In this document: positions 44,814 through 64,000 of the stretch, in pieces | Layout: each line of letters starts with the position of its first letter | Numbering within the stretch: the stretch's first letter is position 1 | NCBI GenBank assembly: GCA_958295905.1 | Contig: OY282382.1 | Location: forward strand, 2,442,001-2,506,000 | Direction: 5' to 3' | DNA: 64,000 bases | DNA from: an uncultured Vicinamibacterales bacterium | GTDB taxonomy: Bacteria; Acidobacteriota; Vicinamibacteria; Vicinamibacterales; UBA8438 | The notes under the pieces: model-generated | What the model saw: the letters and a program-made list of their open reading frames with translations, nothing else | Told to the model about the DNA's origin: nothing | The model's database searches: none | Translations under genes and position numbers: made by a program

Positions 44814-45003
44814 GGTCCGTCACGCCATAATCTTCGTATGGACGGACTTGAGTCGAGGGTGCGATTTTCCTGCATGGGGGACTCTCCCGGATTCCAGGTG
44901 AGTTCTCCGATGACTCTACGGCGCGGATTCCTGGAGGGTTGGTTGGGCGGCAATCGGAGCCGCAGGCGACGATTTCCGGGCCAGGAGTCTGCGCCGTAGA
45001 GTG
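44814..45003 (+). repeat. Dispersed intergenic element, copy 2, with long inverted repeat
   Basis: The block 44814-44908 resembles the reverse complement of the element at 26217-26363, including TCACGCCATAATCTTC (44820-44835). Next to it is an inverted repeat with 22-bp arms at 44913-44934 and 44981-45002 (20 of 22 positions pair), separated by 46 bases. It begins two bases after the radical SAM stop and may also work as a transcript end. Non-coding. Confidence 0.75.
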
Positions 45004-45484
45004 TCGCGCCGGCGAATTTCCCAACCCGTGGCGTGCTGCGGCGCGCCTCTGAGGCGTGCCGTCTCGGCGCGGCCTGACAGCCCGGATCGAAGGGGTGCGG
45101 CGGGAGATCGGGGTCCGGATCGGCAACATCCTGCCCGCGGACCGGAAGTCCTCGTCGTCAGGAACCGGGGCCCGACCACTACCGGTTTCTTCGGGTTGCG
45201 GCCGCGATTTCGATGAAGCCTCCGCGTTACGGGTTCCGATCTTCCGCCCGTCCGTCAGACGCGGACCCTCACGTATCGACTTCGGAACGGCCATTCCAGC
45301 CGGCCGCATCCACGGCGGTCCGCATGGCCGAAGGCCGCGGCGCGTGCGGACGGGCCGCGGGAAGCGGGCGTGTGCGGCGCCCGGTCTGTAGTAGACTCGC
45401 CCGAAAAATCGGGGCGGCGTTTCGTGGAAGAAACTCGCCCGCCCCGCGCCGCTGAGAACCGGGTGTGAGGGAGGACGGCAGACG
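45004..45484. other. Non-coding gap before the defence operon
   Basis: No reading frame here looks real. A short GC hairpin with an A-rich loop (CGCCC-gaaaaatc-GGGCG, near 45402-45420) lies about 65 bases before the next start and could belong to the promoter or leader of the operon at 45485. A GGGAGGA stretch about 11 bases before the GTG is the likely ribosome-binding site. Confidence 0.4.
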
Positions 45485-46270
45485 GTGAGCGTTTTCGAAC
45501 AGGCCTTCGGAGAGGTCGAACATGCCGCGGCCTCCACGGCCGCGTCGGCTCAGGGGCTCGTTTCGCTGGCGAAGAAGATGCAGAAGGCGGCCCGGGAAGG
45601 GAACATCGCGGGCGTGAAGCGGGCGCGGAGCGAGCTCGACGCCGCCCTCGGCGAGTTGCGGCACGCGGTCGCCGGCGCCGTCGATTCATGGTCCCTGCCC
45701 GAGGATGAAGAGCAGGGTTATCTCGAGGACGGCTACGCTGCCGAGCTCCGCGCGGCGGCGGAGGAACAGGGGCTGAACGTCTACGAGCGGGACGGGAAGC
45801 TGATCTCGTACCCGTCCATCGTGCGCATTCTGCCCGGTGACCGGGCGGTCCGGGTGGACGGGAAGAAGGTGGCCGCCCTTCGGCCGTCCCATCTCGCCGG
45901 TCTGCTGCTGAAGAACCAGAAGAAGCCCGGTCGATACCGGTCGGACCGCTTCCTCCAGGCGCTCCACACGGTCTATGTGGAGATCGTGCGCGGGGACGGG
46001 CGCGGGGCGGGCGACGGGCCCGTCGTGCCCCTGACCCGGGTCTACAGGCTCCTCACGTCCCTGCCGGGGGCCGGCCGGGAGTACGACAAGACGGACTTCG
46101 CGCGGGATCTGTACATCCTGGAAGCCGACGGTCCCCGGCGGACCCGGAAGGGCGCCGCCGTGGCCTTCCCCGCCTCCACCGGCATCCGGCAGTCCGGGTT
46201 CTTCTCGTTCGTCGGCCCCGACGGGCAGGAGGCCCGGTACTACGGCATCAGCTTCACCGCGGACGGGTAA
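45485..46270 (+). CDS. Protein of unknown function, first gene of a BrxD-linked operon
   Basis: The 261-residue product starts with GTG. It has a helical N-terminal third (FEQAFGEVEHAAASTAASAQ and a Lys, Arg and Ala-rich helix, about 4-65) that may form a coiled coil, and a mixed middle part (NVYERDGKLISYPSIVRILPGDRAVRVDGKK). The C-terminal part contains FARDLYILEADGPRRTRKG. I recognise no domain. Its TAA overlaps the next ATG (TAATG), so it is coupled to the two ATPase-like genes and should be a subunit of the same system. Confidence 0.7.
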   Translation: MSVFEQAFGEVEHAAASTAASAQGLVSLAKKMQKAAREGNIAGVKRARSELDAALGELRHAVAGAVDSWSLPEDEEQGYLEDGYAAELRAAAEEQGLNVYERDGKLISYPSIVRILPGDRAVRVDGKKVAALRPSHLAGLLLKNQKKPGRYRSDRFLQALHTVYVEIVRGDGRGAGDGPVVPLTRVYRLLTSLPGAGREYDKTDFARDLYILEADGPRRTRKGAAVAFPASTGIRQSGFFSFVGPDGQEARYYGISFTADG

Positions 46271-47259
46271 TGACGAACGCCATCTCCATCGACGACTGGC
46301 TGCGCCGTATCGAAGACGAATACCTGTCGACGTTCGTCAGGGACGGCGGTGCGGCCGTGAAGTTCGCCGTGACCCCGGACGACGAGCAGCCGGCGTTGCG
46401 CGAGGCGCTGGAGCGCCGCTGCCGGGAGTCGGGCTACGTCTTCGCCGCGCTGGACGCGGCGGCGTTGCGGGCCCACATGCCCCATGACCTCTTCTTCGGG
46501 CTGGCGCGGCAGATCGATTGGCGGGGGTTGGCGCGCCGGCGGGTGCTGCGGCTGGCGGCCGACAGGCGGTATCAGGTCGGCGCCATCGACGCCGAGGGCG
46601 ACGACAACGTCTTCGACGCCATCGCCGGCGCCAACGGCCTCGAGGCGCAGTCGGTGCTCGTGCGGCTCAGGCCCGACATCGAGACGCGCGTCTTCAAGCA
46701 CCCCGCGATGGTCCGGGACTTCCGGGTGGCCATGACCAGTCTGTGCGAGCTCGCCGGGAACCGGCCGGACGGCAGCTACGAAGGCCAGCCGGTGCTGGAC
46801 TGGCTGACCGGCGCCAACACGCGCCTGAGCCCCGTGCGGCCCTTCCTCATCCACACCGCCATCAACCGGGCGACGGCCCGTCGCTTCCTGGAGTCGGCGC
46901 TGCACTGGGTGCGGGAGGCGGGCTGCACGGGGACGGTGGTGTTGCTGGACAACCGCCGCGTCACCGTGGCCCGCAACCCCAGAGACGGACTGCGGTACTA
47001 CACCCGGGCGATGACCGTCGATCACTACGAGTTGCTGCGCGAGTTCGTGGACGGCGTTGATCGCCTGGCCGGGACCCTGCTGGTGGTGGCGACCGGCGAC
47101 GGCTTCCTCGACGAGGCCGGCCACGGCTCGCGGGGCTTCGGCATCTACGAAGCGTTGAAGACCCGTGTGATGAACGACGTGCGGGACCGGCGCCTGGTCA
47201 ATCCGGTCGCCGCGCTGGTGCGGCTGTCGCACCACGGCGGACTGCAGCATGGATCGTGA
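46270..47259 (+). CDS. Protein of unknown function, ATPase-partner-like
   Basis: The 329-residue protein sits between the first gene and the BrxD-like ATPase and overlaps both (1 and 11 bases). It has no Walker A. Segments such as AVKFAVTPDDEQPALREALE, DLFFGLARQIDW and GTVVLLDNRRVTVAR with TLLVVATGDGFLDEAGHG have the strand pattern of a P-loop-like fold without the nucleotide loop. It may be a degenerate ATPase that pairs with the following protein. I give no function. Confidence 0.7.
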   Translation: MTNAISIDDWLRRIEDEYLSTFVRDGGAAVKFAVTPDDEQPALREALERRCRESGYVFAALDAAALRAHMPHDLFFGLARQIDWRGLARRRVLRLAADRRYQVGAIDAEGDDNVFDAIAGANGLEAQSVLVRLRPDIETRVFKHPAMVRDFRVAMTSLCELAGNRPDGSYEGQPVLDWLTGANTRLSPVRPFLIHTAINRATARRFLESALHWVREAGCTGTVVLLDNRRVTVARNPRDGLRYYTRAMTVDHYELLREFVDGVDRLAGTLLVVATGDGFLDEAGHGSRGFGIYEALKTRVMNDVRDRRLVNPVAALVRLSHHGGLQHGS

Positions 47260-48526
47260 TGACGGGAAGCTGACGATACGGCGCGCCGTCGAGGCGCTGC
47301 GCAACGGTGTGCCCAACCCGGCGGCCGTGGAGATGCTGGGCTGCCGCCAGCCGAAGGCGGAAGCGGCGTTCGCCGAGCTGCTGGCCGGGGCCGAAGACGC
47401 GCGCGTTCCGGCCGCGCGCGTCCAGGGGATGCTGGTGTCGGGAGACTTTGGCGCGGGCAAGTCTCACGTGCTGGTCCACCTCGAGCGGCAGGCGCTCGCG
47501 CAGGGTTTCGTGTGCAGCCGGGTGGCCGTGAGCAAGGAGACGCCCTTCTACGACCTCGGCAAGGTGTTCAAGTCCGCCGTCGACAACGCCCGCATGCCGG
47601 ATCGCGAGGGGCGCCTGTTCGAGGAGCTGGGGACGGTCGCCGACCGGGGATCGGAGAGCTTCGCCGGGTTCGTCGAGTGGGTGGAGGCCGCCGAGTCGAA
47701 AGGGGTCCTGCACCGGGTCTTCCCGGCCAGCGTGGCCGTGTACGACAGCCGGCGAGACCCCGAGCGCAACGCCAGGATCGAGTCGTTCTGGGCCGGAGAC
47801 CGGATCAAGGTGTCCGACGTCAAGGACGGACTGCGGCTGATCGGACAGGGGCAGCGGTGCGCCTTCCGCACGCCCCGGGCCGCCGAGCTGCCGCCGCAGC
47901 GCCTCCGTTTCGCGGTCGAGCTGATGCGGGGCGCCGGGTACAAGGGCTGGGTGGTGTTGCTGGACGAGCTCGAACTGGTCGGCTCGTACTCGCCCCTGCA
48001 GCGCGGCCGGTCGTACGCCGAGCTGACCCGCTGGCTGGGGCACGCCTCGGGCGACGGCTGTCCGGGCCTGATCGCGGTCGCGGCGGTGACCGGCGACTTC
48101 GCGTCCGCCATCCTCGGTCCGGACGGCAAGAACGACCGCGAGGGCGTGGTTCGGCGGTTGGCGGACAGCCGCTACGCGGACAGCGTGCGCCGGGCCGAGG
48201 CGGGCATCCGCCTGCTGGAACGCAAGTGCATCCGCCTGTCCCCGCCCACCGCCGACGACGTGCGCGACACCCTGGAGACGCTGCGGCGGATCTACAGCGA
48301 CGCTTACGGGTGGGAGGCCCCGCGGCTGGAGCCGAGCGTCCGCGGCGTGGGCATCCAGGCCCGGATGCGCTACAAGGTCAGGGCCGCCATCAACGAGTGG
48401 GACCTGCGGCGAATCTATCCGGGCTCCCGTCCGGACACCGTGGGCGGCGAGTTCCACCACGCCTACGAGGAGAACGCCGACCTCGAGCGGGAGTCCGGAG
48501 ACGACGCGGAGGGCGCCGGTCGGTAG
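47249..48526 (+). CDS. BrxD-like (DUF2791) ATP-binding protein
   Basis: The 425-residue protein has the DUF2791/BrxD layout: TIRRAVEALRNGVPNPAAVE at the N-terminus, Walker A GDFGAGKSHVLVHLE at about 67-81, and Walker B WVVLLDELELVGSYSPLQRG at about 234-253, followed by RYADSVRRAEAGIRLLE and RKCIRLSPPTADD. BrxD belongs to BREX-type phage defence, where it works with a BrxHI helicase. Here a DUF1998 helicase follows about 1 kb downstream, after an insertion-like region. Start ATG 47249 overlaps the upstream gene. Confidence 0.85.
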   Translation: MDRDDGKLTIRRAVEALRNGVPNPAAVEMLGCRQPKAEAAFAELLAGAEDARVPAARVQGMLVSGDFGAGKSHVLVHLERQALAQGFVCSRVAVSKETPFYDLGKVFKSAVDNARMPDREGRLFEELGTVADRGSESFAGFVEWVEAAESKGVLHRVFPASVAVYDSRRDPERNARIESFWAGDRIKVSDVKDGLRLIGQGQRCAFRTPRAAELPPQRLRFAVELMRGAGYKGWVVLLDELELVGSYSPLQRGRSYAELTRWLGHASGDGCPGLIAVAAVTGDFASAILGPDGKNDREGVVRRLADSRYADSVRRAEAGIRLLERKCIRLSPPTADDVRDTLETLRRIYSDAYGWEAPRLEPSVRGVGIQARMRYKVRAAINEWDLRRIYPGSRPDTVGGEFHHAYEENADLERESGDDAEGAGR

Positions 48527-48585
48527 CTCCCGCGCCTGCCGGCGGTGCGCTGATGGGCGTGGCGCCTGAGCCCGTGTCGAAGTCC

Positions 48586-48775
48586 CCCGCTGCCTTCGAG
48601 CGGCGATGCATCCCGCCCGACTGCGTTGTTCGTCGGTCGCCTATGCCCATATGGGCGCCCTCCCTGACGCCTTGTCAGGCACGGCCGTTCTTTGCCCGCG
48701 GGCGCTCTCCAGCCCGCCGGCGCCCTCGCTGCTCCCGGTGCGACGCGGGGTTTCACCGCGGCTGCTGAGCTGCAG
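48586..48775 (+). repeat. Dispersed repeat, copy 2 (after the BrxD-like gene)
   Basis: The left end (48586-48628) matches 31904-31946 at 39 of 43 positions and the right end (48700-48754) matches 32070-32121. It lies in the 1,010-base stretch between the BrxD-like gene and the DUF1998 helicase. That stretch otherwise holds only the Rpn remnant and about 125 bases on either side in which I see nothing. Confidence 0.7.
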
Positions 48776-48902
48776 CTTGGCGGCGTCGATCCGGTTGCCG
48801 AACTGGTGGTCGTGGTCCCAGGACGTGGCCGTGTCGGCGTCGAGCCGCTGGCTGTCGGGCGGTCGTTCCGCGGTCCTTGGCGCGGTATGATCGACTCGAT
48901 TC

Positions 48903-49426
48903 ATGGATGATCCCGCGTACAAACGCCTGTTCTCGCGGCCCCGGATGGTCCAGGACCTGCTGCGCGGCTTCGCCGCCCGCGACTGGAGCGGCGACCTCGA
49001 TTTGGCGTCGCTGACGCCGCTGCCGGCGAGCTGTTGCGGAAGCAGGACGATGAGGAACTGACGGCGGCGTTCACCGAATGGGCGGCGCAGGTGCTGCTGC
49101 TGCGGCGGTTCCGCGGGTCGGTGTCGGGGCCGCTGCCGCGGCTCGAGGAGGTGCGGACGATGTTGGTCGAAACCGTTCAGGAGTGGACCGTCGCGTGGGT
49201 CGAGCAGGGCCGCGAGCAGGGCCGCGAGCAGGGCCGCGAGCAGGGCCAGCGTGCGTTGCTGTGCCGCTTGGCGGCGCAGAAGTTCGACGCGGCGGCGGCG
49301 CAACGGCTGGCGGCTGCGATCGAGAGCGTTGCGGATCCGGACCGCTTGGCGCAGGTAGGCGACTGGATCATCGAGTGCGCGACGGCGGCCGAGCTGTGGG
49401 CTCGCTTCCAGGATGGCTCGGTGTAG
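48903..49426 (+). pseudogene. Rpn/PDDEXK-type nuclease gene with internal deletion
   Basis: The start encodes DDPAYKRLFSRPRMVQDLLR and GFAARDWSGDLDLASLTPLP, the typical beginning of Rpn-family (recombination-promoting nuclease-like) proteins of about 300 residues. After about 117 bases the frame changes, and from 49034 a second frame carries the family's C-terminal part (LLRKQDDEELTAAFTEWAAQ, then repeats of EQGR, and a DUF4351-like tail). The central nuclease domain is gone. This is a broken gene inserted between two defence genes. Confidence 0.75.
49202..49249 (+). repeat. Four 12-bp tandem repeats (GAGCAGGGCCGC)
   Basis: Three exact units and one diverged unit in register encode Glu-Gln-Gly-Arg repeats in the hinge of the Rpn-type remnant. 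Such repeats are common in this family and change copy number easily. Confidence 0.85.
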
Positions 49427-49536
49427 TCGGTCAACTGATACAGAATCGGAGGTGTCTACCCGGTTGGGATGGGGGTTGGATGCGGCAGCGCCTCCATGCC
49501 TCGATCTGCGGGTGCGCACTGGCGTCGCTTTCTACC

Positions 49537-52500
49537 ATGGATGTTTTTGCTCTCAGGAGCCGTCTGGTCTCCGACTACCGGAACTATATCCGCAGCTTCA
49601 TCAAAATCGGCGACCCCCGCATCAAGCAGTTTGTTGACAGCCACCTTGCTGGAGAGGGGTTCTGGCCGGAACCGCTCCTGCAATTGAACCCGACGTTCAA
49701 GCCGGGCGGCACGATCGATGATCTGGTAACGGAGGGGATCCTTCACAAGGAGTGCTCGCGGATCTTCCGGATCGGCAAGTCGGATACGGACCACCGCGGC
49801 AAGCAGCTTCTTCTGCACCAGCACCAGCGCGAGGCGATCCTTGAGGCCGCCAAGGGTCGGTCCTACGTGCTGACGACGGGCACTGGATCTGGCAAGAGCC
49901 TCGCCTATATCGTGCCGATCGTGGACCACGTACTCCGAAGCGGGTCCGGTCGAGGCGTCCAGGCCATCATCGTCTATCCCATGAACGCCCTCGCCAACAG
50001 CCAGGACGAGGAGCTCGGCAAGTTCGTTAACAAGGGCTATCCGGATGGCCGGTCACCGGTGCGGTTCGCGCGGTATACGGGGCAGGAGCGGGGCCCGGCC
50101 CGCGAAGCCATTCGGAGCGACCCGCCGGATATCCTCCTGACGAACTACATGATGCTGGAGCTGCTGCTCACGCGAACGGAGGACCGTGAGGTGCTGAGAG
50201 CCGCACAAGGTCTCAGGTTCCTCGTCTTCGACGAGCTGCACACGTACCGAGGTCGTCAGGGGGCTGACATCGCAATGCTGATCCGCCGTTGCCGCCACGC
50301 GGTCGGGGGCGGTGTCGTCTGCATCGGCACTTCCGCCACGATGACCCGCGGCGGTAGCAGCGACGAGCAGCGCCGTGACGTGGCGGAAGTGTCGCAGTCC
50401 CTGTTCGGTGTGAAAATTTCGCCGGAGCAGGTGGTCACCGAAAGTCTGGAGCGGGCGACCCCGGAGATCGACCCTGCGGATCCGTCGATCCGGACCGGTA
50501 TCCGGGCCGCCGTCGTTTCGGATGAAGGACCGCCGGCTGACTACGGGACGTTCTGTAGGCACCCTCTTGCCTCGTGGATCGAATCGACCTTCGGCGTGTG
50601 CGAGGAAACGGGCACCGGCAGGTTGCTCAGACAGACGCCGCGGGGACTGGAAGGGGATCCGATCGGGGATCGACGCAGCGCGGCCGCGGAGCTTGCAGAG
50701 CTGGTGGACGCCGATCCTGGACGCTGCGCGGCGGCGCTTCGCCGCTGGCTGCTTCGGGGGTCCAGCCTGTATCCAAGCATCTCCAGTCGTTTTTCCATCT
50801 TTGCGTTCCGGTTGCATCAGTTCCTGACCCGCGGTGATACGGTGTGGGCATCGCTCGAACCGGTAGCGGACCGCCATCTGGAGATCGCGAAGAAGGCGGC
50901 CAAGCCGGGTGAACCGGACAAGCCGCTGTTCCCGCTCGTTTTCTGCCGCCGCTGCGGAACCGCCTACTACCGGGTCCGGGTCGTCGATGACGACAACGGC
51001 AGGGGGCTGCTGCCCCGCGAGGATCGTCGGGAGCAGGAGGATGGCAGCGGCCATGATGGCTACCTGTATCTCTCGGAGGAAGCGCCCTGGCCTCGTGCTG
51101 ACGGCCCTCCGCTGCTCGGTCGCTTGCCGGAATCTCTCAAGGAGACGACCGTTCGGGGCGTCGAACGAATCCGCTCTGCTGTCCGCGGGGACGTTCCGGA
51201 GGCGGTGTTCGTCGCGCCCTCTGGGCGGATCGTCTCGGAGGGAGCCGGGGCGCCGGCTGCTCTAGTCCACCGCAATTTTCTGTTCTGCCTGGAGCCCTCC
51301 TGCGGCGTCGCCTACACCCGGACCCAGCGTTCCGAGCGTTTCAAGCTCGCGACCCTGGGGGTCGACAACCGGAGCACGGCCACGACCATCCTTGCGGTCC
51401 GGTCGCTCATTGAGCTGCAGCGTGATCAGGCACTGGAGCCCGAGGCGCGCAAGCTGCTGAGCTTCACGGACAACCGCCAGGACGCTTCCCTGCAGGCGGG
51501 TCACTTCAACGACTTTGTGCAGGTCGCTCTGTTGCGGTCGGCGTTGTATCGCGCGTGCCGAGCGGCGAGCACGCAAGGGCTTGGCCACGGTGATCTGTCA
51601 CGTTGCGTCTTCGACGCCATGAATCCGCGGTTCGACGATTACGCCGCCGACCCGGAGGTGCGCGGCCCGGCGCGGCAGCGTACTCAAGACGCCCTGCGGC
51701 GCGCTCTCGAGTACTTCCTCTATCGCGACCTCGAACGGGGTTGGCGGGTGACGGCGCCCAACCTCGAGGATTGCGGGTTGCTGCGGTTCGAGTACGAAGG
51801 GCTCGCCGGGGACGACGGGCTGCTCGGCGAGACGGCGTTGTGGGAATCGGGATTCTCCGTACGGGAGGACCGGGGGAGCGAACGATTCGTCGAAGTGCCC
51901 GCAGGGCTTCGGTTGGCGTCTGCCGAGTCTCGGGAGCAAGTCGTTCGGACCTTGCTTGACGAGCTGCGGCGGGCGCTGGTCGTCAAGGTCGATGCCCTCG
52001 ATTCCGGAAAGCAACATGATCTCGTCGAGCAGACGAAGCCGCGTCTCCTCGAAGGCACCGTCTGGTACCTCGACGACGAACGGGAGTTGACCAGCGCTGT
52101 CATCGCGTGGCCTCGTTCCAGAAGACCACGTGAGCACGGTTTCTTCGTCTCGTCCCGTGGCGCCTACGGTCAATACGTCAAACGCGTGCTCGCCCCGCAT
52201 TCGGCGCCGGACGGGACTCTCGGACGCGAGGGCATCGACGAGATCATCCGGTTCCTGTTTCTGGCGCTGAAGCGCTACGGCATCGTCGAACAGGTCCGGA
52301 CAAGTCGTGCGGGCGACGATCCGGGCTATCAGCTCAATGCCGGCGCTCTTCGCTGGTTCCCAGGCGACGGTCAGGGTGCGTCCGATCGCACCCGTTTGCT
52401 TGACGAAGGCGGGCTACCGGCGGAAGTGAACCGCTATTTCGTGGAGTGCTACCGCAGTTTCGTGGATCTGCGATGCGTTCTCGAAGCCCGCGAGCATACG

Positions 52501-54822: not shown

Positions 54823-54897
54823 GCCGGTAGCCGCACTACAGCCGCCGAGCGCAGATTCCGATAGGGAAGGCGACAGCCGTTCACTTCCCTTCGGAGC

Positions 54898-57744
54898 ATG
54901 AGCACCGCTTCTCTCTCCGCGCCGGGAACCCTCGTTCAGGCGAGGGGCCGCGAGTGGGTTGTGCTGCCCGAGTCCACGGACGAGATGCTCATGGTCCGTC
55001 CGGTTGGCGGGCTTGACGAGGAGATCGCCGGCATCCTGCCGGGCGTCGAGTTGGTCGAATCGGCGGTGTTCCGCCTGCCCGGCAGAGAGGACGTCGGGGA
55101 TTTCACCACGGGCCGACTGCTGCGCGACGCGGCCCGCCTGTCGACCCGCTCGGCCGCGGGTCCGTTCCGTAGCTTCGGCCGCATCGCCGTCGAGCCCCGG
55201 CCGTATCAGCTTGTGCCTCTGATGATGGCGCTCAAGCTCGATCCGGTGCGGATGCTCATCGCCGACGACGTTGGCATCGGCAAGACCATCGAGGCGTGTC
55301 TCATCGCGCGGGAGCTGCTCGACCGCGGCGAGATCCGTCGAATTGCGGTGCTGTGTCCGCCGCATCTGGCTGAGCAGTGGCAGCGCGAGCTGGCGGAGAA
55401 GTTCCACGTCGAGGCGGAACTCGTTCTGTCGAGCACGGTGCAGCGTCTCGAACGCGATCTTCCCCTCGGCGAGTCGGTCTTCGACCGGCATGCCTTCACG
55501 GTGGTCTCGACCGACTTCATCAAGGCGGCACGGCGAGCCGACGACTTCGTCCTCAAGTGCCCCGAGTTCGTCATCGTGGACGAGGCCCACGGCTGTACTC
55601 TGGCCGGCGGCGGCCGCGGCCGGCAGCGGCGTCACGACCTGCTGCGCCGCCTTGCGGCGGCGCCCGACCGCCATGTAGTGCTGGTCACCGCGACGCCGCA
55701 CAGTGGGAACGAACAAGCGTTCCGTTCGCTCCTGAGTCTGCTCGACGACGACTTCGCCAACCTGCCGGCGGATCTCGATCAGGCCGGCCGCGAAGGCGTT
55801 CGCCGCCGGCTTGCGCGCCATCTCGTCCAGCGTCGCCGCGGCGACATCCGCCGCTACCTCGAAGCCGACACCGCGTTTCCGGAACGCAGCGACAAGGAAG
55901 AGACGTACAGTTTCAGCCCCGTCTACCGCAAGCTCTTTGACGACATCCTCGCGTTCGCCCGCGAGTACGTGACGGACGCCGATGGAGGGCGTCGCCGGCA
56001 GCGCGTGCGCTACTGGTCGGCGCTCGCGCTGTTGCGCTGCGTCTCGTCGAGCCCGGCGGCCGCTGTGGCGACCCTGCGCAGCCGGGCCGCGGTCGACGAA
56101 GCCGACGACGAAGACCTGGATGACGTGGGCCGCCGCACCGTCCTTGACCAGAGCGACGATGACGACGCCGCCGTGTTCGACTTCAGTCCCGGCTCGGAGA
56201 TGGAAGGCGGTCGCGAGACGACGCGGCGCCGGCTGCTGGAGTTCGCCCGCCGGGCCGAATCGATCACTCACCGGGATGATCGGAAGCTCCAGGGCGCTGC
56301 GCGCGAAGTCAGGGCCTTGCTCCGGGATGGTTTCCATCCGGTCGTCTTCTGTCGGTTCGTCGACACCGCAGAGTACGTCGCAGGTTTTCTTCGAGAGGCG
56401 CTGCCGGGGGACGTCGGGGTGGAATGGGTTACGGGTCGGCTCCCGCCTGCGGAGCGCGAGGCGCGTATCGATGCCGTCACCGCTGGCGGCGGCTCGTTCG
56501 TGCTGGTCTGCACCGACTGCCTGTCGGAAGGCGTCAATTTGCAGGCGCACTTCGACGCCGTGTTGCATTACGACCTCGCGTGGAACCCGACGCGGCACGA
56601 GCAGCGGGAAGGGCGCGTGGACCGTTTCGGGCAGCAACGGCCCGAGGTTCGGACCGTCACCTACTATGGCGCCGACAACGCGATAGACGGTGTGATTCTC
56701 GATGTGCTCATCCGCAAGCACAAGTCCATCAAGAGCGATCTCGGGGTGGCGGTCGCGGTACCCGCCTCCGCCGAGCAGATGGCAGAGACGCTGTTCCAAG
56801 GCGCGCTGTTTCGCGAGCAGGCGGGCGCGGCAGTCCAACAGCTCTCCCTTGACTTCATCGACCATCTCGACATTACGAACCACAACCTTCACGCCGAATG
56901 GGAGAACGCCCGCGACCGTGAGAAGGTCAGCCGCTCCCGCTTCGCACAACACACGCTCCATCCCGAGGTGGTCGCTGCCGAGATTGCGCGCGTACGGGCC
57001 GCCATTGGCCGGAGCGAAGAGGTTGCGCGGTTTTTCACCGCTGTTCTCCACACGGCGAACGTGCGTGCCCGCATGAACGGACGGATCGAGGTCCACGTCA
57101 GCCGTGAAACGCCGCGCGCGCTGCGTCAGGCGATCGGGCGGGACGAGCCGTTCGTCGGGCGTTTCGAGCTGCCCGTGGCGGACGGGGAAATTCACCTCGG
57201 GCGCACGAGCCCCATCGTCGAAGGCCTCGCGAGCTGGACGCTGGATCAGGCCCTCGACCCGGAATCCCGCGACGCCGGCGGGTCCGTCGCCTCCCGCTGC
57301 GGGGTGATCGTCACCGCGGCGGTGACGGTGCGAACGACGCTGTTGCTGGTGCGCTTCCGCTATCACCTGCGTCGTCCCGGATCGGGCGGCGGCACCCTGC
57401 TCTGCGAAGAAATCGTCCCGCTGGCGTGCGCCGGTTCGGAGAAGGCGCCGCGCTGGCTGTCGCCGGAGGACGGGGAGCGTCTGCTGGCCGCGCCGCCCGC
57501 GCGCAACCTGCCGCCGACCGGCGTCGAACAGCAGCTTCGTGTTCTGTTGCCGGTTCTGCCGTCGTTCCAGGCGGCCCTCGAATCTGTCGCGGCTGAGCGT
57601 GCGGACGCTCAGCGTGCGGCGCACGAGCGGGTGCGCGCGGCGTCCCGCGCAGGGACGTCACGCGGCCGGAACCGCACCGCCGTGAAGCCCGTGCTACCCG
57701 CCGATATCCTCGGCGCGTACGTTCTCCTGCCCACGTTGAACTGA
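54898..57744 (+). CDS. SNF2-type helicase (DrmD/BrxHII-like)
   Basis: The 948-residue protein has an SNF2 core: Walker A LIADDVGIGKTIEACLIARE at about 120-139, DEAH box VIVDEAHG at about 224-231, SAT-like TATPHSGNEQAF, and the second domain with TDCLSEGVNLQAHFDAVLHY and QREGRVDRFGQQRPEV near 570-585. A C-terminal domain of about 300 residues follows. Similar proteins are DrmD of DISARM and BrxHII of BREX. It begins 75 bases after the DUF1998 helicase and ends one base before the methyltransferase start. Confidence 0.88.
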   Translation: MSTASLSAPGTLVQARGREWVVLPESTDEMLMVRPVGGLDEEIAGILPGVELVESAVFRLPGREDVGDFTTGRLLRDAARLSTRSAAGPFRSFGRIAVEPRPYQLVPLMMALKLDPVRMLIADDVGIGKTIEACLIARELLDRGEIRRIAVLCPPHLAEQWQRELAEKFHVEAELVLSSTVQRLERDLPLGESVFDRHAFTVVSTDFIKAARRADDFVLKCPEFVIVDEAHGCTLAGGGRGRQRRHDLLRRLAAAPDRHVVLVTATPHSGNEQAFRSLLSLLDDDFANLPADLDQAGREGVRRRLARHLVQRRRGDIRRYLEADTAFPERSDKEETYSFSPVYRKLFDDILAFAREYVTDADGGRRRQRVRYWSALALLRCVSSSPAAAVATLRSRAAVDEADDEDLDDVGRRTVLDQSDDDDAAVFDFSPGSEMEGGRETTRRRLLEFARRAESITHRDDRKLQGAAREVRALLRDGFHPVVFCRFVDTAEYVAGFLREALPGDVGVEWVTGRLPPAEREARIDAVTAGGGSFVLVCTDCLSEGVNLQAHFDAVLHYDLAWNPTRHEQREGRVDRFGQQRPEVRTVTYYGADNAIDGVILDVLIRKHKSIKSDLGVAVAVPASAEQMAETLFQGALFREQAGAAVQQLSLDFIDHLDITNHNLHAEWENARDREKVSRSRFAQHTLHPEVVAAEIARVRAAIGRSEEVARFFTAVLHTANVRARMNGRIEVHVSRETPRALRQAIGRDEPFVGRFELPVADGEIHLGRTSPIVEGLASWTLDQALDPESRDAGGSVASRCGVIVTAAVTVRTTLLLVRFRYHLRRPGSGGGTLLCEEIVPLACAGSEKAPRWLSPEDGERLLAAPPARNLPPTGVEQQLRVLLPVLPSFQAALESVAAERADAQRAAHERVRAASRAGTSRGRNRTAVKPVLPADILGAYVLLPTLN

Positions 57745-57745
57745 C

Positions 57746-60700
57746 ATGGCCCGTCGACGGCCGCGAGGGTTTCAGACGATTCGCTCGGAGGGCGGGCTGC
57801 TTCCGGCGGATCTGCTGCGGCGCCTGACGGATTCCCGCTCAACGCCGCCGGGTGCCCGGCCGGGCGACTATGCGCTCGCCGCCGGGGAGCGTCTGAACGA
57901 GGTCATCACGCAGTCCTGGAACCGTCTGCGCAAGCACTGGACGGAATTCCGCACCGCTGCCGCGAATCTGTCCGTGGGCCGGGCGGGGACGGGACTCACG
58001 AACGACAAGTGGAGCCTCCCGCTGCTTCGCGACCTCGGGTTCGGTCTACTGCCGACGACCGCCGGCCCCGAGATCGGCGGCCGTACCTACGCCGTCCGAC
58101 GCAGTTTCGGGCCGGCGCCCGTTCACCTCATCGGGTGCGGGCTTTCGCTCGATCGCCGCGCCGCCGGCCAGCACGGCGCCGCGTCCGCCAATCCGCACGG
58201 GCTGGTGCAGGATCTGCTTAACCGCGACGACGAGCGGTTGTGGGGTATCGTCTCGAACGGGCTCCGCCTGCGCCTTCTCCGGGACAACCAGGCGCTTTCC
58301 CGCCAGTCGTTTCTCGAGTTCGATCTCGAAGCGATGTTCTCTGGCGAGGTCTACGCCGACTTCGTGATCCTTTGGCTCGTGGCGCACGCCACGCGCTTCG
58401 CACCGCGGGAGGGGGGCGACCGACCCGAGACATGCCGGCTGGAGCAATGGACCCGCGAGGCGGAACGACAGGGCGCGCGGGCGTTGGGGGAACTGCGCGG
58501 CAACGTTGAGGGCGTCCTGCAGATTCTGGGCCAGGGATTCACCGCTCACCCGAAGAACACTGCGTTGCGCGAGGCGCTGCGCGCCGGCACGATCGGGCTG
58601 GACGATTTCCACGGCCAGCTCCTGCGCGTCGTGTACCGGCTGATCTTTCTATTCGTCGCGGAGGATCGCATCCTCGACGGACAGCCGCTCCTTCACCCGC
58701 GGGACGATTCCGACGCTGGGCGGATCGCCCGCGAGCGCTACGCTGCGCACTACGGCACCGGTCGGCTGCGGGAGCTGGCCGGTCGGATCAGGGGATCCCG
58801 CCACGGCGATCTGTGGCGCCAGTTCCGGCTTCTGGTGGGCGCGCTGTCGGGTGATGCCCGCTTTGAACCGACCCGGCGGGCGCTGGCGCTCCCCGCGCTC
58901 GGCAGCTTTCTTTGGGACCCGGATACGACCGTCGCCCTGAACGACGCCGAGCTGACCAACTACGACTTTCTGGAGTCGCTGCGCCGCCTCGCCTTCATCC
59001 GTCAGGACAAGGTCCTGCGGCCGGTGGATTACCGCAACCTCGGCGCGGAGGAGCTGGGCGGCGTCTACGAGAGCCTGCTCGGACTGACGCCGCAGCTCAA
59101 CGGTGACGGCGCCCGTTTCACCTTCGCGGAGTTCGCCGGCAACGCCCGCAAGACGTCGGGCTCCTACTACACGCCGGACGAGCTGGTGCAATGCCTGCTC
59201 GATTCCGCCCTCGACCCGGTGGTCGAGGCGGCGGTCCAGGACAAGGCCGGCGCTGCGGCGGAGCGGGCGCTCCTCGACCTCAAGGTCTGTGATCCCGCGG
59301 TTGGCTCCGGCCACTTCCTCGTCGGCGCCGCGCACCGCCTCGCCCGCCACCTGGCGCGTGTCCGGGCGCACGCGGCGGGGGACGGCGAACCGTCGCCGCT
59401 GCTCTATCAGCACGCGCTGCGCGACGTGATCGGCCGCTGCCTTTACGGCGTCGACGTGAACCCGATGGCCGCCGAACTCTGCCGCGTGAGCCTCTGGCTG
59501 GAAGCCCTGGAGCCCGGCAGGCCGCTCTCGTTTCTCGATCATCACGTCCGCGTCGGCGACAGCCTGCTCGGGACGACGCCCGCGCTCATCGAAGCGGGCC
59601 TGCCCGACGAGGCGTTCAAGCCGATCGGGGGCGACGACAAGCACGTCTGTTCCGCGATCAGGAAGCGGAATCGTCTTGAGCGCGAGGGTGGCCAGCGCCA
59701 CATGGGGCGGTTGCTGGCCGCCGAACCGCGGCCGGAGTACGGCGGCATCGCACAGCTGAGCCGGGACCTCGACGAATCGCCGGACGACACCCTGGACGAA
59801 GTGCGGCGGAAGGAAGCCCGGTTCCGAGGCTTGGTCCTCTCACCGAAGTACCGCCAGAGGCTGCTCGTCGCGGATGCTTGGTGCGCCGCGTTCGTCTGGC
59901 CCAAACGGGCGGGCGACGCGGGCGACGTCGCCCTCTGCGTCACGACCGATACGATGAGGGAGCTTCATGACGATCCCGACGTCTTGGCGGCGGACCAACG
60001 TCGGGAGGTCGACCGCTTGGCCGCAGGGTACCGGTTCTTTCACTGGGATCTCGCGTTCCCGGACGTGTTCGAGAACGGCGGCTTCGACTGCGTGCTCGGC
60101 AACCCGCCGTGGGAGAAGGTCAAACTCCAGGAGAAGGAATGGTTCGCGGAGCGCAAGACGGAGATCGCGGACGCCCCCACCGCGGCGGCGCGCAAGCGGA
60201 TGATTCAGACCCTGAAGACGGATGACTTCCCGCTCTACCAGCGTTTCCTCGACGACTTGCGCGAATCCGAGGGCCGGAGCCATCTGATGCGCAACACCGG
60301 CCGCTATCCGCTGTGCGGTCGGGGCGACCTCAACCTGTACGCCGTCTTCGCCGAAGCGATGCGGACCATCGTGAACGAGCGCGGCCGCGCCGGTTGCGTG
60401 CTGCCCACCGGCATCGCCACCGACGACACGACCAAGTTCTTTTTTCAGGACGTGGTGGAGACCAATTCGCTCGTCAGTATTCTCGACTTCGAGAACAAAG
60501 GCGTCTTCTTTCCCGACGTCCACAGCGGCCAAAAATTCTGCCTGTTCACCGCAGGCAGTGGCTCACGGTCCATCATCGGGATCATCGGGCAACAGCGGCA
60601 ACAGCCCACTACCAGCGGCGCGGAGTTCGTCTTCTTCTGCCACGACGTGGAGGAGCTGCGCGACCCCGCACGTCGCTTCACGCTCTCTCCCGAAGACATC

Positions 60701-62452
60701 GCCCTCCTGAACCCCAACACCCGCACCTGCCCGATCTTCCGCTCCCGCAAGGACGCCGAGCTGACCAAGGCGATCTATCGGCGGGTGCCGGTGCTGCTCC
60801 GTGAGGCACGGAGCGGGCGCCCCCCAGAAAATCCTTGGGGCATCCGTTTCAAAAGAATGTTCGACATGTCCAACGACTCGTATCTCTTCCGGACTCGGGA
60901 GCAACTCGAGGTTGGAGGCTGGGAACTGGATGGCAACGTGTTTCGCCAGGGCGGCTTGCAGCATCTGCCGTTGTACGAAGCGAAGATGACCCAGATGTAC
61001 AACCACCGTGCCGCGGACGTCGTGGTCAGTCACCGTGCACGCCAGCGCAGGGCCCAGCCGGCTCCGCTCGAAGGCGCACTGCTTGCCGATCCGCATCGCT
61101 CGGCGATTCCGCTCTATTGGATCGAGGAACACCGATGTTCCCATGCTCTTGACGGCCTCTGGACTCGCGACTGGATGCTCGGGTTCACGGACGTCACGAG
61201 CCCCACGAATGAACGGACCATGAACGCAGTCGTGTTGCCTTGGGCAGGTATCGGTAACACCATGCCCATCCTGGTCGGTACAGAGCACGCGCTGGACTTC
61301 CGAATCCTGTACGCAAACCTGTGCTCCTTCGTATACGACTACGTCGTCCGACAGAAAATCGGCGGCATCCACCTGAATTTCTACCTAGTGAATCAGTTTC
61401 CGGCGTTGCCGCCGAAGATGGCCGGCGAGGTATGTCCCTGGGATGCTTCTCGGACGAACGGTTCCTGGGTGACGGATCGCGTCCTTGAACTCACCTACAC
61501 CGCGTGGGATCTTAAACCCTTCGCGAGCGACTGCGGCTGCCACGGCCCGCCATTCCGCTGGAACGAGGACCGCCGCTTCCTCCTCCGTAGCGAGCTCGAA
61601 GCCGCCTTCTTTCATCTCTATCTTCCGGCGAACGAACGAGGGCATTGGCGTCCCGCACGCCGATCCGGCGGCTGCCCTTGCGACGAAACATCCACGGAAC
61701 TTGCGGAACTCGAACGCCACTTCCCCAAGCCGTGCGACGCGGTCGCCTACGTCTTGGACACCTTCCGCATCGTCCGCGACAAGGACGAACAGAGGTTCGG
61801 CGAGTACCGCACGAAGCGCGTGATCCTTGAAATCTACGACGCGATGCAGGAGGCGACTGCCACCGGTACTTCCTATCGGACGACGCTTGACCCGGTGCCC
61901 GCCGATCCGCGGTGCTGTCATCCGCTCCAGTCGGTCGCACCCGAGGTCGTGCTGCCGGCATTGGCGGATCTGCCTGACGGTGCTTGGGTCAAGCCAGCTA
62001 CCGGCGACCAGGTGAACCATGAGATCGTGGTCCTTGCGGCCGTTCTCAAGGCTGTCGGCGCGCCGGCGCCGATACGCCGTGTCCGGCTCGCCGCGGTCCT
62101 GGCGATGGAGCCAAGACTGCTCACGCCGTCGTTGTCACAGGCGGACGCAGCCGATTGGCACCGTCTGATTGGTCCTGATGCAGAGCCGTTGCCCGCGGGA
62201 GTGTCGCGGTTGCAGCGTCCGGCGCACGCTTGGGGTGAAGCCGTGGGACAGCTCCGCGGCGCCGGCGATCTGATCGAGGACCTGGACGCGAAGACGTGGG
62301 CGCGGGGTTCGGCGCTGAATGCCGTCGAAACCGAGGGATGGCCGGACGGACGCGTGCGTATGGTGCTCGAGGCCTTGCAACGGCGCGGCGACGGGGAGAT
62401 CGTTCGGACGCTCCCGGAGGCCGTCAGGGTCTGGGTCAATGAAGCAGCTTGA
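57746..62452 (+). CDS. Eco57I/DrmMI-like DNA N6-adenine methyltransferase
   Basis: The 1568-residue protein has an amino-terminal helical part, a class I methyltransferase core with motif I VCDPAVGSGHFLVGAAHRLA at about 514-533, DVNPMAAELCRVSLWLEAL, and the catalytic motif NPPWEKVKLQEKEWF at about 786, the N6-adenine type. A target-recognition-like region and a C-terminal part follow. The size and motifs match DrmMI of class 1 DISARM and large Eco57I-like enzymes. No separate restriction domain is obvious. The stop overlaps the next gene (ATGAAGCAGCTTGA). It would mark self DNA. Confidence 0.87.
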   Translation: MARRRPRGFQTIRSEGGLLPADLLRRLTDSRSTPPGARPGDYALAAGERLNEVITQSWNRLRKHWTEFRTAAANLSVGRAGTGLTNDKWSLPLLRDLGFGLLPTTAGPEIGGRTYAVRRSFGPAPVHLIGCGLSLDRRAAGQHGAASANPHGLVQDLLNRDDERLWGIVSNGLRLRLLRDNQALSRQSFLEFDLEAMFSGEVYADFVILWLVAHATRFAPREGGDRPETCRLEQWTREAERQGARALGELRGNVEGVLQILGQGFTAHPKNTALREALRAGTIGLDDFHGQLLRVVYRLIFLFVAEDRILDGQPLLHPRDDSDAGRIARERYAAHYGTGRLRELAGRIRGSRHGDLWRQFRLLVGALSGDARFEPTRRALALPALGSFLWDPDTTVALNDAELTNYDFLESLRRLAFIRQDKVLRPVDYRNLGAEELGGVYESLLGLTPQLNGDGARFTFAEFAGNARKTSGSYYTPDELVQCLLDSALDPVVEAAVQDKAGAAAERALLDLKVCDPAVGSGHFLVGAAHRLARHLARVRAHAAGDGEPSPLLYQHALRDVIGRCLYGVDVNPMAAELCRVSLWLEALEPGRPLSFLDHHVRVGDSLLGTTPALIEAGLPDEAFKPIGGDDKHVCSAIRKRNRLEREGGQRHMGRLLAAEPRPEYGGIAQLSRDLDESPDDTLDEVRRKEARFRGLVLSPKYRQRLLVADAWCAAFVWPKRAGDAGDVALCVTTDTMRELHDDPDVLAADQRREVDRLAAGYRFFHWDLAFPDVFENGGFDCVLGNPPWEKVKLQEKEWFAERKTEIADAPTAAARKRMIQTLKTDDFPLYQRFLDDLRESEGRSHLMRNTGRYPLCGRGDLNLYAVFAEAMRTIVNERGRAGCVLPTGIATDDTTKFFFQDVVETNSLVSILDFENKGVFFPDVHSGQKFCLFTAGSGSRSIIGIIGQQRQQPTTSGAEFVFFCHDVEELRDPARRFTLSPEDIALLNPNTRTCPIFRSRKDAELTKAIYRRVPVLLREARSGRPPENPWGIRFKRMFDMSNDSYLFRTREQLEVGGWELDGNVFRQGGLQHLPLYEAKMTQMYNHRAADVVVSHRARQRRAQPAPLEGALLADPHRSAIPLYWIEEHRCSHALDGLWTRDWMLGFTDVTSPTNERTMNAVVLPWAGIGNTMPILVGTEHALDFRILYANLCSFVYDYVVRQKIGGIHLNFYLVNQFPALPPKMAGEVCPWDASRTNGSWVTDRVLELTYTAWDLKPFASDCGCHGPPFRWNEDRRFLLRSELEAAFFHLYLPANERGHWRPARRSGGCPCDETSTELAELERHFPKPCDAVAYVLDTFRIVRDKDEQRFGEYRTKRVILEIYDAMQEATATGTSYRTTLDPVPADPRCCHPLQSVAPEVVLPALADLPDGAWVKPATGDQVNHEIVVLAAVLKAVGAPAPIRRVRLAAVLAMEPRLLTPSLSQADAADWHRLIGPDAEPLPAGVSRLQRPAHAWGEAVGQLRGAGDLIEDLDAKTWARGSALNAVETEGWPDGRVRMVLEALQRRGDGEIVRTLPEAVRVWVNEAA

Positions 62453-64000
62453 TTTCCTCGACCGCGGTGGACCGCCTCTGGCATTCGGCAAGGGTGGCTC
62501 CGAGCCGCGCCTCTGGGTGCGTCGTCTCGTAGTTTGGAGCGAGCCTGGCGTCGAGTTGCGCGAAGTTCGATTGCGGCCGGGCCTCAACATCCTCTGGGCG
62601 CCCGACCCGGCAGAGAAGGGCGACGCACCGGATGACGACCTCGATGTCGTAGGCCACGGCAGCGGAAAGACACTGTTCTGCCGCCTGCTTCGGTATTGCC
62701 TGGGAGAGGACCGTTTCGCGCCGGACGACCAGCGCGACCGTATCGCCCACGCGTTTCCGAAGGGCCTTGTCGGCGCGGAAGTCGCGGTGGATGGCGTCAC
62801 GTGGGCCGTGGTCCGGCCGATCCGCATGGGGGGGCGTCATTGGGTCGTTCGGGACGCGCACCTCGATCAGGTGGTGAAGGGGAATGGCGAAGCGGGCGGC
62901 ATGGATCCGCTACTGGATGCGATCGCCGCGACCTTCGCGCTCAACGAGCTGGTCCCTGTCAGTCCCGGAGATCGTCCCCGGGACGTGTGGCGTCTGGCGC
63001 TCGCGTGGTTGTCCCGGGATCAGGAGTGCCGTTTCGACAAGCTGCTGGACTGGCGCTCGGCGGATTCGAATTCCCGATCTCCCGCCCGTAACCTCTCTGT
63101 TCACCAGCTTCTGGACACGGTGAGGGCGTTGATCGGCGCAATCGTCCCGGATGAATCCGCGATTCGTGCGGAAATCGCCGAACTGGAAGCGAAGCGCGGG
63201 GAAGTCCGGGACCAAGCTGATCGGCGAGCCTCGGAAGCGGCCAGTCTGCGATCGAGACTGATCGACGAACTGCGGCTCAGTTCTGAAGACTTGCTTCCCG
63301 GCCGCATGGCCGTGGAGTCATTGCGGAATGCGGCGAAGACACGTTTGGACGGTTTTGGGAAGACGGGGACCGGTCCTGCTGCGGACATGGGCGATCTCAG
63401 CGATCTCGACGTGTTGCGGTCGGAACGCGACGCCGCGCAGCGTCAAGTCCAGAAGCTGCAGAACAACCTGTCCGTTGTTCAAGCACGGATGCCGGAGATC
63501 CAGGCAATAATCTCCCGTATCAAAGGAGAAATCCCCAGCGCGTCAGCTCGCACGCACCGCGCGGAGCATTGGCTGTGCCCCGTCTGTGAAGTACCCGTGG
63601 ACAGAGTACTGGCGGAAGGCTGCAAGCTGTCGCGTGAACTCCCGGATCTGGAAGAACTGAAGCGGCGGCAGGAGCAGCTTCATCAAGATCATGCGTGGCA
63701 ACAGCGCCGGCTGCAGGAACACCAAGAGGAAGAGGGGCGCATTGCGCGGGAGTTAAATCCCGCGCGCGAACGTGCGGACGCTCTGCACCGGCGGCTGCGC
63801 GCCGTGGAGCACGCGCGAGACGAGCGGTCCGAAGCGTGGTTTGCTGCACGTCGTCTGCTCGATGACGTCGATCGGCTGGATCGGTCGCTGGTCGAGGAGG
63901 AATCGATGCGGTCCCGCGCTGACGCGCTGGAAGACGAGATCCGGACCAAGCGTGATCGACTGGCCGCCTTGCGCGATGAGCAGGCCGGGGTCTTCGATAG
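62439..64000 (+). CDS. SMC-like ATPase with zinc hook (partial, runs off the window)
   Basis: The frame is open from ATG 62439 to the window end (520 codons). It has an ABC-type Walker A, VVGHGSGKTLFCRLL at about 70-84, then coiled coils from about residue 225, interrupted by a CPVC zinc-hook motif at C380/C383, and a second coiled-coil arm. The second half with the signature and Walker B is beyond the window. Related proteins include Rad50/SbcC and defence ATPases such as those paired with nucleases. The start overlaps the methyltransferase stop by 14 bases, tying it to the same operon. Confidence 0.82.
   Translation, partial: MKQLDFLDRGGPPLAFGKGGSEPRLWVRRLVVWSEPGVELREVRLRPGLNILWAPDPAEKGDAPDDDLDVVGHGSGKTLFCRLLRYCLGEDRFAPDDQRDRIAHAFPKGLVGAEVAVDGVTWAVVRPIRMGGRHWVVRDAHLDQVVKGNGEAGGMDPLLDAIAATFALNELVPVSPGDRPRDVWRLALAWLSRDQECRFDKLLDWRSADSNSRSPARNLSVHQLLDTVRALIGAIVPDESAIRAEIAELEAKRGEVRDQADRRASEAASLRSRLIDELRLSSEDLLPGRMAVESLRNAAKTRLDGFGKTGTGPAADMGDLSDLDVLRSERDAAQRQVQKLQNNLSVVQARMPEIQAIISRIKGEIPSASARTHRAEHWLCPVCEVPVDRVLAEGCKLSRELPDLEELKRRQEQLHQDHAWQQRRLQEHQEEEGRIARELNPARERADALHRRLRAVEHARDERSEAWFAARRLLDDVDRLDRSLVEEESMRSRADALEDEIRTKRDRLAALRDEQAGVFD

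What the first reader, a model, noticed from the sequence alone, without database searches (positions are those of the whole stretch)
45485..64000. Composite defence island mixing BREX, Druantia and DISARM parts
Order: unknown protein, ATPase-like protein, BrxD-like ATPase, (Rpn remnant), DUF1998 helicase with nuclease-like tail, DrmD-like helicase, DrmMI-like methyltransferase, SMC-like ATPase. All run the same way and most overlap or nearly touch. No PglZ, BrxL, DrmB, DrmC or separate restriction gene is seen. In DISARM terms, DrmA and DrmB roles may be fused in the first helicase and the nuclease role moved to its C-terminus. I do not recognise this set as a named system, so it is the best candidate for an undescribed one.
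Basis: inference. Interest (0 to 1): 0.85.

Follow-up and report, generated by a model that had tools for sequence, protein, structure and literature searches.

The report
ARMADA-type defence operon beside BREX-ATPase module
The stretch holds two separate anti-virus gene sets lying side by side in an acidobacterium: a recently named DNA-restricting system (ARMADA) extended by an SMC-like motor protein, and a three-gene ATPase module that is spread over many bacterial phyla and that I could not match to any named system.

Summary
(1) 49537-64424: DUF1998/YprA helicase with an intact Vsr-like nuclease tail, SNF2 helicase, PglX-like methyltransferase, SMC-like ATPase. The first three match ARMADA Type I, described in 2025 (PMC12458937). 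The fourth gene (Rad50-like, CPxC motif) recurs in the same order in another Vicinamibacteria MAG and seven proteobacterial plasmids. It always follows a ~180-aa domain at the methyltransferase's C-terminus, which ARMADA copies without it lack. One viral contig carries the same domain-plus-SMC pair on a Type III restriction enzyme, so the pair looks like a plug-in. I found no mention of it in that paper's main text. (2) 45485-48526: a triad of coiled-coil protein, BrxD-like pseudo-ATPase and BrxD-like ATPase. It is found in 72 of 75 loci in at least nine phyla, usually followed by a SNF2 helicase, in some Actinobacteria by a PbeA-like helicase or beside Shango, and never within about 10 kb of ARMADA. 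The window's copy has lost its helicase but stays under purifying selection. Sister species carry the triad without ARMADA; another relative carries ARMADA+SMC without the triad. Verdict: a chance junction of two modules, one a new ARMADA variant, one apparently unnamed.

The parts
45485..46270 (+). A: 261-aa protein, N-terminal helical hairpin plus mixed C-terminal domain; adaptor of the A-B-C triad
   Evidence: Conserved upstream of B in 72 of 75 loci; AlphaFold2 pLDDT 92
46270..47259 (+). B: BrxC/D-like pseudo-ATPase, no Walker A or B
   Evidence: PF10923 34.3 bits; 0 of 72 homologues with Walker A
47249..48526 (+). C: BrxD-like AAA+ ATPase (GDFGAGKS, VVLLDE)
   Evidence: PF10923 68 bits; 70 of 73 homologues with Walker A
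48903..49426 (+). Broken Rpn-like remnant between the two modules
   Evidence: Stops and frameshift on translation; Rpn by reading only
48833..64000 (+). Block shared with the ARMADA+SMC locus of G085 (to 64432 in the genome)
   Evidence: blastn 73-82% identity
49537..54822 (+). D: YprA/DruE-like helicase with MZB/DUF1998 domain (ArmC of ARMADA)
54523..54819 (+). Vsr-like PD-(D/E)XK nuclease domain at the C-terminus of D
   Evidence: E..RPDF..YVDGPPHD aligned with homologues
54898..57744 (+). E: SNF2 helicase, BrxHII/DrmD-like (ArmA of ARMADA)
   Evidence: DVGIGKT and DEAH
57746..62452 (+). F: PglX/DrmMI-like adenine methyltransferase (ArmB of ARMADA)
   Evidence: Eco57I, N6_Mtase; DPAVGSG, NPPW
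61901..62449 (+). Extra C-terminal domain of F, found only where G follows
   Evidence: tblastn against all fetched loci, alignment A3
62439..64000 (+). G: SMC/LmuB-like ATPase with CPxC motif (runs on to 64424)

Best explanation
Two independently inherited defence modules meet at a chromosomal hotspot. Module 2 (D-E-F-G, 49537-64424) is an ARMADA Type I restriction system with an added SMC-like subunit. Inferred mechanism: F methylates host DNA at a recognition site. D (YprA-type helicase) and E (SNF2 translocase) load on unmodified incoming DNA and translocate, and D's Vsr-like PD-(D/E)XK tail cuts it. G, a Rad50-like ATPase, docks on F through F's extra C-terminal domain and probably bridges or compacts DNA, or senses ends, to hold the complex on linear or replicating foreign DNA. 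Module 1 (A-B-C) is a BrxD-like loader pair: an active AAA+ subunit C and an inactive partner B, with A as coiled-coil adaptor. It normally delivers a helicase (SNF2 or PbeA-like) to invading DNA. Here its own helicase gene is lost, and the triad is kept under purifying selection, either for a reduced function or with a helicase supplied in trans. Shown: gene content, conservation, linkage, motifs, selection and independent occurrence. Inferred: all biochemical steps.
For: ARMADA identity: order YprA-like, BrxHII/DrmD-like, PglX-like and C-terminal Vsr-type nuclease as defined in PMC12458937. D hits DruE models at 1e-106 and has DEAD, Helicase_C and MZB/DUF1998 domains; Walker A TGTGSGKS, DELH box, and E..RPDF..YVDGPPHD nuclease motif shared with Deinococcus, Nocardioides, Roseomonas, Rhodococcus and others. 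F has DPAVGSG and NPPW and Eco57I/N6_Mtase domains. SMC subunit: same D-E-F-G order in G085 (84/83/76/68% identity) and on plasmids of Paraburkholderia, Caballeronia, Agrobacterium, two Mesorhizobium, R. gallicum and R. leguminosarum. G has LmuB hits, GHGSGKT and CPxC. The F C-terminal domain occurs only in loci with G, and with G on a Type III Res in L149. Module 1: 75 loci, A-B-C in order in 72; Walker A in 0 of 72 B and 70 of 73 C; SNF2 helicase next in 43, PbeA-like in 5, Shango beside it in 3; the tree places the window copy among helicase-bearing ones; dN/dS 0.24-0.36. Separate histories.
Against: No expression, methylation or phage data exist. D was not placed in the published YprA tree, since reference sequences were not at hand, so Type I rests on gene order and the nuclease type. 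The structure model of the F C-terminal domain is poor (pLDDT 47), so docking of G on F is a guess from linkage. A has a confident model (pLDDT 92) but no convincing structural match. In rhizobial G-bearing loci aligned, D's nuclease motif is degenerate, so D is not always the cutter.
Confidence: 0.78

Rival explanations
1. The seven genes are one composite system: the BrxD-like pair loads the two helicases of the ARMADA part.
For: Same strand, 1 kb apart, both intact in this genome. BrxD is proposed to load or activate its helicase (PMC12839542), and the triad's own helicase is missing here.
Against: Combination seen in this genome only: 75 triad loci without an ARMADA operon within about 10 kb, no triad at any ARMADA locus fetched. 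G118 keeps an intact triad with no ARMADA helicase found in its genome. The block shared with G085 (48833-64432) and the one shared with G115/G118 (45371-48511) do not overlap.
Confidence: 0.06
2. Separate in origin, but the triad now helps ARMADA in this cell: an A-B-C module that tolerates different helicases has been re-plugged onto the ARMADA helicases after losing its own.
For: The triad is found with at least three kinds of helicase neighbour: SNF2, PbeA-like, Shango SngC. Its helicase is absent here and the ORFs are under purifying selection.
Against: The same purifying selection is seen between G115 and G118, which have no ARMADA next to the triad. Only one example of the pairing exists.
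Confidence: 0.17
3. The triad in this lineage is a relic on the way out: the helicase was lost and the rest has not yet decayed.
For: Helicase-less loci need at least five changes on the tree; a C-terminal helicase remnant lies next to the triad in G100.
Against: All three ORFs are intact in three congeneric genomes with dN/dS 0.16-0.36; a drifting gene would approach 1.
Confidence: 0.17
4. G is an independent Lamassu-like defence gene that merely follows ARMADA.
For: Best profile matches are LmuB; most ARMADA carriers lack it.
Against: No LmuA gene beside it; G overlaps F here and by 17 bp on several plasmids. The F C-terminal domain is present in the G-bearing loci and in none of the ARMADA loci without G that were examined.
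Confidence: 0.05

Closest known systems
ARMADA Type I (Bell et al. 2025, PMC12458937)
   Same: YprA/DruE-like helicase first, then BrxHII/DrmD-like SNF2 helicase, then PglX-like methyltransferase; Vsr-like nuclease at the helicase C-terminus; MZB/DUF1998 domain
   Different: A fourth gene, SMC-like ATPase G, and an extra C-terminal domain on the methyltransferase; neither SMC nor DUF2326 is mentioned in the paper's main text (its supplements were not readable here)
ARMADA Type II
   Same: Same three shared proteins plus a fourth gene
   Different: Order differs (BrxHII-like, PglX-like, then YprA-like) and its fourth gene is a GajB-like helicase with a RelE-like domain, not an SMC-like ATPase
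DISARM class 1
   Same: DrmD-like and DrmMI-like proteins
   Different: No separate DrmA, DrmB or PLD nuclease DrmC; helicase and DUF1998 parts are fused
Druantia Type III (DruH-DruE)
   Same: D is closest to DruE3 profiles in PADLOC
   Different: No DruH; nuclease is Vsr-like rather than PLD; methyltransferase present
Lamassu (LmuB)
   Same: G matches LmuB profiles; ABC/SMC ATPase with coiled coils and CPxC
   Different: No LmuA effector; G is tied to the methyltransferase
BrxD of Type 2 BREX, and Shango SngB
   Same: C (and, degenerate, B) belong to the BrxC/BrxD ATPase family; helicase neighbour as in BrxD-BrxHI and SngB-SngC
   Different: Always an active/inactive pair plus protein A; helicase is SNF2 or PbeA-like; no PglZ, PglX or SngA

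Membership tests
ARMADA Type I | Operon of YprA-like helicase, then BrxHII-like helicase, then PglX-like methyltransferase | tested here: met
   order as in PMC12458937
ARMADA Type I | Vsr-like (PD-(D/E)XK) nuclease at the C-terminus of the YprA homologue | tested here: met
   E..PDF..VDG..HD motif aligned over 13 homologues, intact in the window copy; motif-based, no structure
ARMADA Type I | Place in the ARMADA Type I clade of the YprA tree, BrxA-like insert after RecA1 | not tested
   Reference set of the paper not held; only gene order and profiles used
ARMADA Type II | Fourth gene GajB-like helicase with RelE-like domain | tested here: not met
   G is SMC/LmuB-like
DISARM | Separate drmA, drmB and drmC genes | tested here: not met
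   PADLOC scan of all genes in the block
Druantia Type III | DruH partner of DruE | tested here: not met
   No DruH match among block genes
Dpd | DpdE passing its curated cut-off, with 7-deazapurine genes | tested here: not met
   NCBIfam DpdE 193.9 bits against a cut-off of 500; PADLOC's DpdE model PDLC02853 matches E with 818 bits but no Dpd modification genes lie in the block
BREX | PglZ phosphatase and BrxC core | tested here: not met
   No PglZ or BrxL match in the block; NCBIfam BrxD 27.7 and 54.5 bits against a cut-off of 350
Shango | SngA (TerB-containing), SngB and SngC together | tested here: not met
   C matches SngB only weakly (17.8 bits); no SngA or SngC match among A, B, C
Lamassu | LmuB with an LmuA effector | tested here: not met
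   LmuB-like G present, no LmuA among neighbours
A-B-C(-helicase) module | A, pseudo-ATPase B and ATPase C in order on one strand | tested here: met
   72 of 75 loci and the window
A-B-C(-helicase) module | SF2 helicase as next gene | tested here: not met
   Absent after C in the window, G115, G118 and G066; remnant in G100

The most novel reading that the evidence does not exclude
Two portable parts unknown to the literature searched here sit side by side. First, an A-B-C module (pseudo-ATPase plus ATPase plus coiled-coil adaptor), found in at least nine phyla, that loads exchangeable helicases onto foreign DNA and would be an unnamed defence system. Second, an SMC-like ATPase with its own docking domain that can be grafted onto restriction enzymes of different kinds (the ARMADA methyltransferase, a Type III restriction subunit), giving restriction systems an SMC-type DNA sensor or bridge.
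Probability: 0.4. Interest if true: 0.78.

Novelty: new variant of a known kind. Interest (0 to 1): 0.62.

Why it matters
It replaces a puzzling hybrid by two testable modules. An SMC-like subunit tied to a restriction-modification system through a swappable domain would join two branches of DNA-based immunity (SMC-type sensing and methylation-based self/non-self marking). A conserved active/inactive BrxD-like pair with exchangeable helicases would test the idea that BrxD-type ATPases are helicase loaders, and adds a candidate system that occurs in cultured actinobacteria (Phytohabitans, Actinoplanes, Saccharopolyspora).

Tried and rejected
Single composite system: rejected on linkage. Dpd, as suggested by the PADLOC DpdE model: rejected, the curated NCBIfam cut-off fails. 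The triad's own helicase elsewhere in the genome: only 37-39% partial SNF2 paralogues within other, mostly longer proteins. Fold of A: AlphaFold2 pLDDT 91.7, but Foldseek found no match at E below 0.001 and VIA-align mainly the N-terminal helical hairpin (residues 1-69), which is not diagnostic; the C-terminal part was not searched alone. Pfam on 54 A homologues gave only marginal matches (CATASP 0.015). Fold of the F C-terminal domain: pLDDT 47, not used; Pfam only a marginal winged-helix match (0.079). Viral contigs: no relative of C, one of G; no G in phage records. Literature searches for the triad and for an SMC-ARMADA link found nothing; supplementary files and subscription journals could not be read.

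Full report
The genome of origin was searchable (G000, 6.3 Mb, an acidobacterium: the closest named relatives are Vicinamibacteria MAGs), so the cut gene G could be completed: 62439-64424, 661 aa. D begins at ATG 49537. I call the genes A to G in order. In coordinates beyond 64000, one search is one base too high.

D-E-F is ARMADA Type I. D (1761 aa) has DEAD, Helicase_C and MZB/DUF1998 domains and is nearest to DruE3 profiles; E (948 aa) is a SNF2 helicase near DrmD; F (1568 aa) is an Eco57I/PglX-like adenine methyltransferase with DPAVGSG and NPPW. Bell et al. 2025 (PMC12458937) describe exactly this order, with a Vsr-type nuclease at the helicase C-terminus, and showed for the related Type II that all four proteins are needed for non-abortive phage protection and that most of their catalytic motifs are too. 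The window's D has the nuclease motif intact (E..RPDF..YVDGPPHD, residues 1663-1714). The same three genes occur without A-B-C in Deinococcus radiodurans MP1, Nocardioides, Roseomonas and Rhodococcus, rearranged in Chroococcidiopsis, and as a second copy in this genome.

G is a real part of a variant. tblastn of G against 72,556 plasmids found eight full-length relatives. Seven sit directly behind D-E-F in the same order (Paraburkholderia, Caballeronia, Agrobacterium, Mesorhizobium AR07 and AR02, R. gallicum, R. leguminosarum); the eighth (Paracoccus) keeps only G and, after what looks like an insertion, the last 65 residues of F. G085, a relative in the same family, has all four genes. F in these loci carries a C-terminal domain (window residues 1386-1568) that is missing from F of the ARMADA loci without G that I examined. 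In a viral contig, L149, a related domain forms the C-terminus of a Type III restriction subunit, and a G relative overlaps its end. Domain and ATPase thus travel as a pair between different restriction systems. G has GHGSGKT, a CPxC motif in its middle part as in Rad50-type hooks, and a conserved HDSPREADLG near the C-terminus. Most ARMADA carriers lack G (1 of 20 carrier genomes tested). In the Agrobacterium and two Mesorhizobium loci an HNH nuclease gene follows G; in the Agrobacterium and Mesorhizobium AR02 copies aligned, D's nuclease motif is degenerate, which suggests that nuclease activity is needed and replaceable.

A-B-C is another module. One scan of 84,980 species genomes with C gave 75 loci; 72 have A, B and C in order on one strand, in Acidobacteriota, Chloroflexota, Pseudomonadota, Actinomycetota, Bacillota, Spirochaetota, Nitrospirota, Myxococcota, Thermodesulfobacteriota and candidate phyla. 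B never has a Walker A motif (0 of 72), C nearly always (70 of 73). Forty-three loci have a SNF2 helicase (ZorD-like by profile) as the next gene, one of them only a remnant and a few partial; five actinobacterial-type loci have a PbeA-like helicase; three have a complete Shango system beside them, transcribed the other way. Neighbours in other loci include a DUF1156 methyltransferase with PLD-helicase, and a Type I restriction subunit, so the context is defence. The tree of C nests the window's copy among helicase-bearing ones; the helicase was lost several times, and G100 keeps a remnant. In the window lineage the triad stays intact with dN/dS 0.24-0.36. No profile in PADLOC or Pfam matches A convincingly, and C matches BrxD far below the curated NCBIfam cut-off. 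I found no description of this set in the papers searched.

The two modules have separate histories. Congeneric G115 and G118 carry A-B-C between the same flanking genes without D-E-F-G, and G118 has no ARMADA helicase that the search could find. The block shared with G115/G118 ends at 48511; the block shared with G085 runs from 48833 to 64432. A 430-bp block lies upstream of A-B-C in G115/G118 but downstream of G here, so this is a shuffling hotspot. None of the 75 triad loci has an ARMADA operon within the up to 10 kb held on each side; the only close match is one helicase fragment 9 kb away in L068.

Mechanism. For ARMADA: F marks self DNA, D and E translocate on unmarked DNA, D cuts, and G docks on F to hold or bridge DNA. 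Steps beyond sequence are inferred from the families and from the mutational data on ARMADA Type II. For A-B-C: BrxD has been proposed to load its partner helicase (PMC12839542); an active/inactive ATPase pair with exchangeable helicases fits that idea. I put about 0.8 on the modular reading and clearly less on the biochemical detail.

Noticed in passing
L006/L007 (G000:C1 about 1071-1085 kb, minus strand): A second ARMADA D-E-F copy in the same genome, 37-45% identical, with F interrupted by about 1.3 kb near residue 857 and a degenerate nuclease tail in D.
   Followed up: partly
window 44915-45000: An 86-base imperfect palindrome (predicted fold -55 kcal/mol) with diverged or partial copies at 26153-26213 and downstream of the window, and relatives in G115/G118; another dispersed repeat lies at 48569-48620, so both flank A-B-C. 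May be a mobile or REP-like element.
   Followed up: partly
L143, L144, L145: An HNH endonuclease gene follows G in rhizobial ARMADA-SMC loci; where D was aligned (L143, L145) its nuclease motif is degenerate.
   Followed up: partly
L141, L145: ARMADA-SMC operons lie next to Tn7/Tn5053-like transposition genes (Mu-type transposase, TniB, TniQ) on plasmids.
   Followed up: no
L102, L106, L115: A Shango system (SngA, SngB, SngC) lies divergently next to the A-B-C triad in Actinobacteria.
   Followed up: partly
L021 (Desulfomonile tiedjei plasmid): A related four-gene set: hypothetical protein, two BrxD-like ATPases and a BrxHI/SngC-like helicase.
   Followed up: partly
window 54898-57744 and L006:1499-5464: PADLOC model PDLC02853 (DpdE) fits the ARMADA SNF2 helicase almost full length (818 bits), so PADLOC may label ARMADA helicases as DpdE.
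   Followed up: partly
L149 (IMG/VR contig): A Type III restriction-modification set with an HKD+SNF2 helicase, whose restriction subunit carries the G-docking domain, followed by a G relative.
   Followed up: yes
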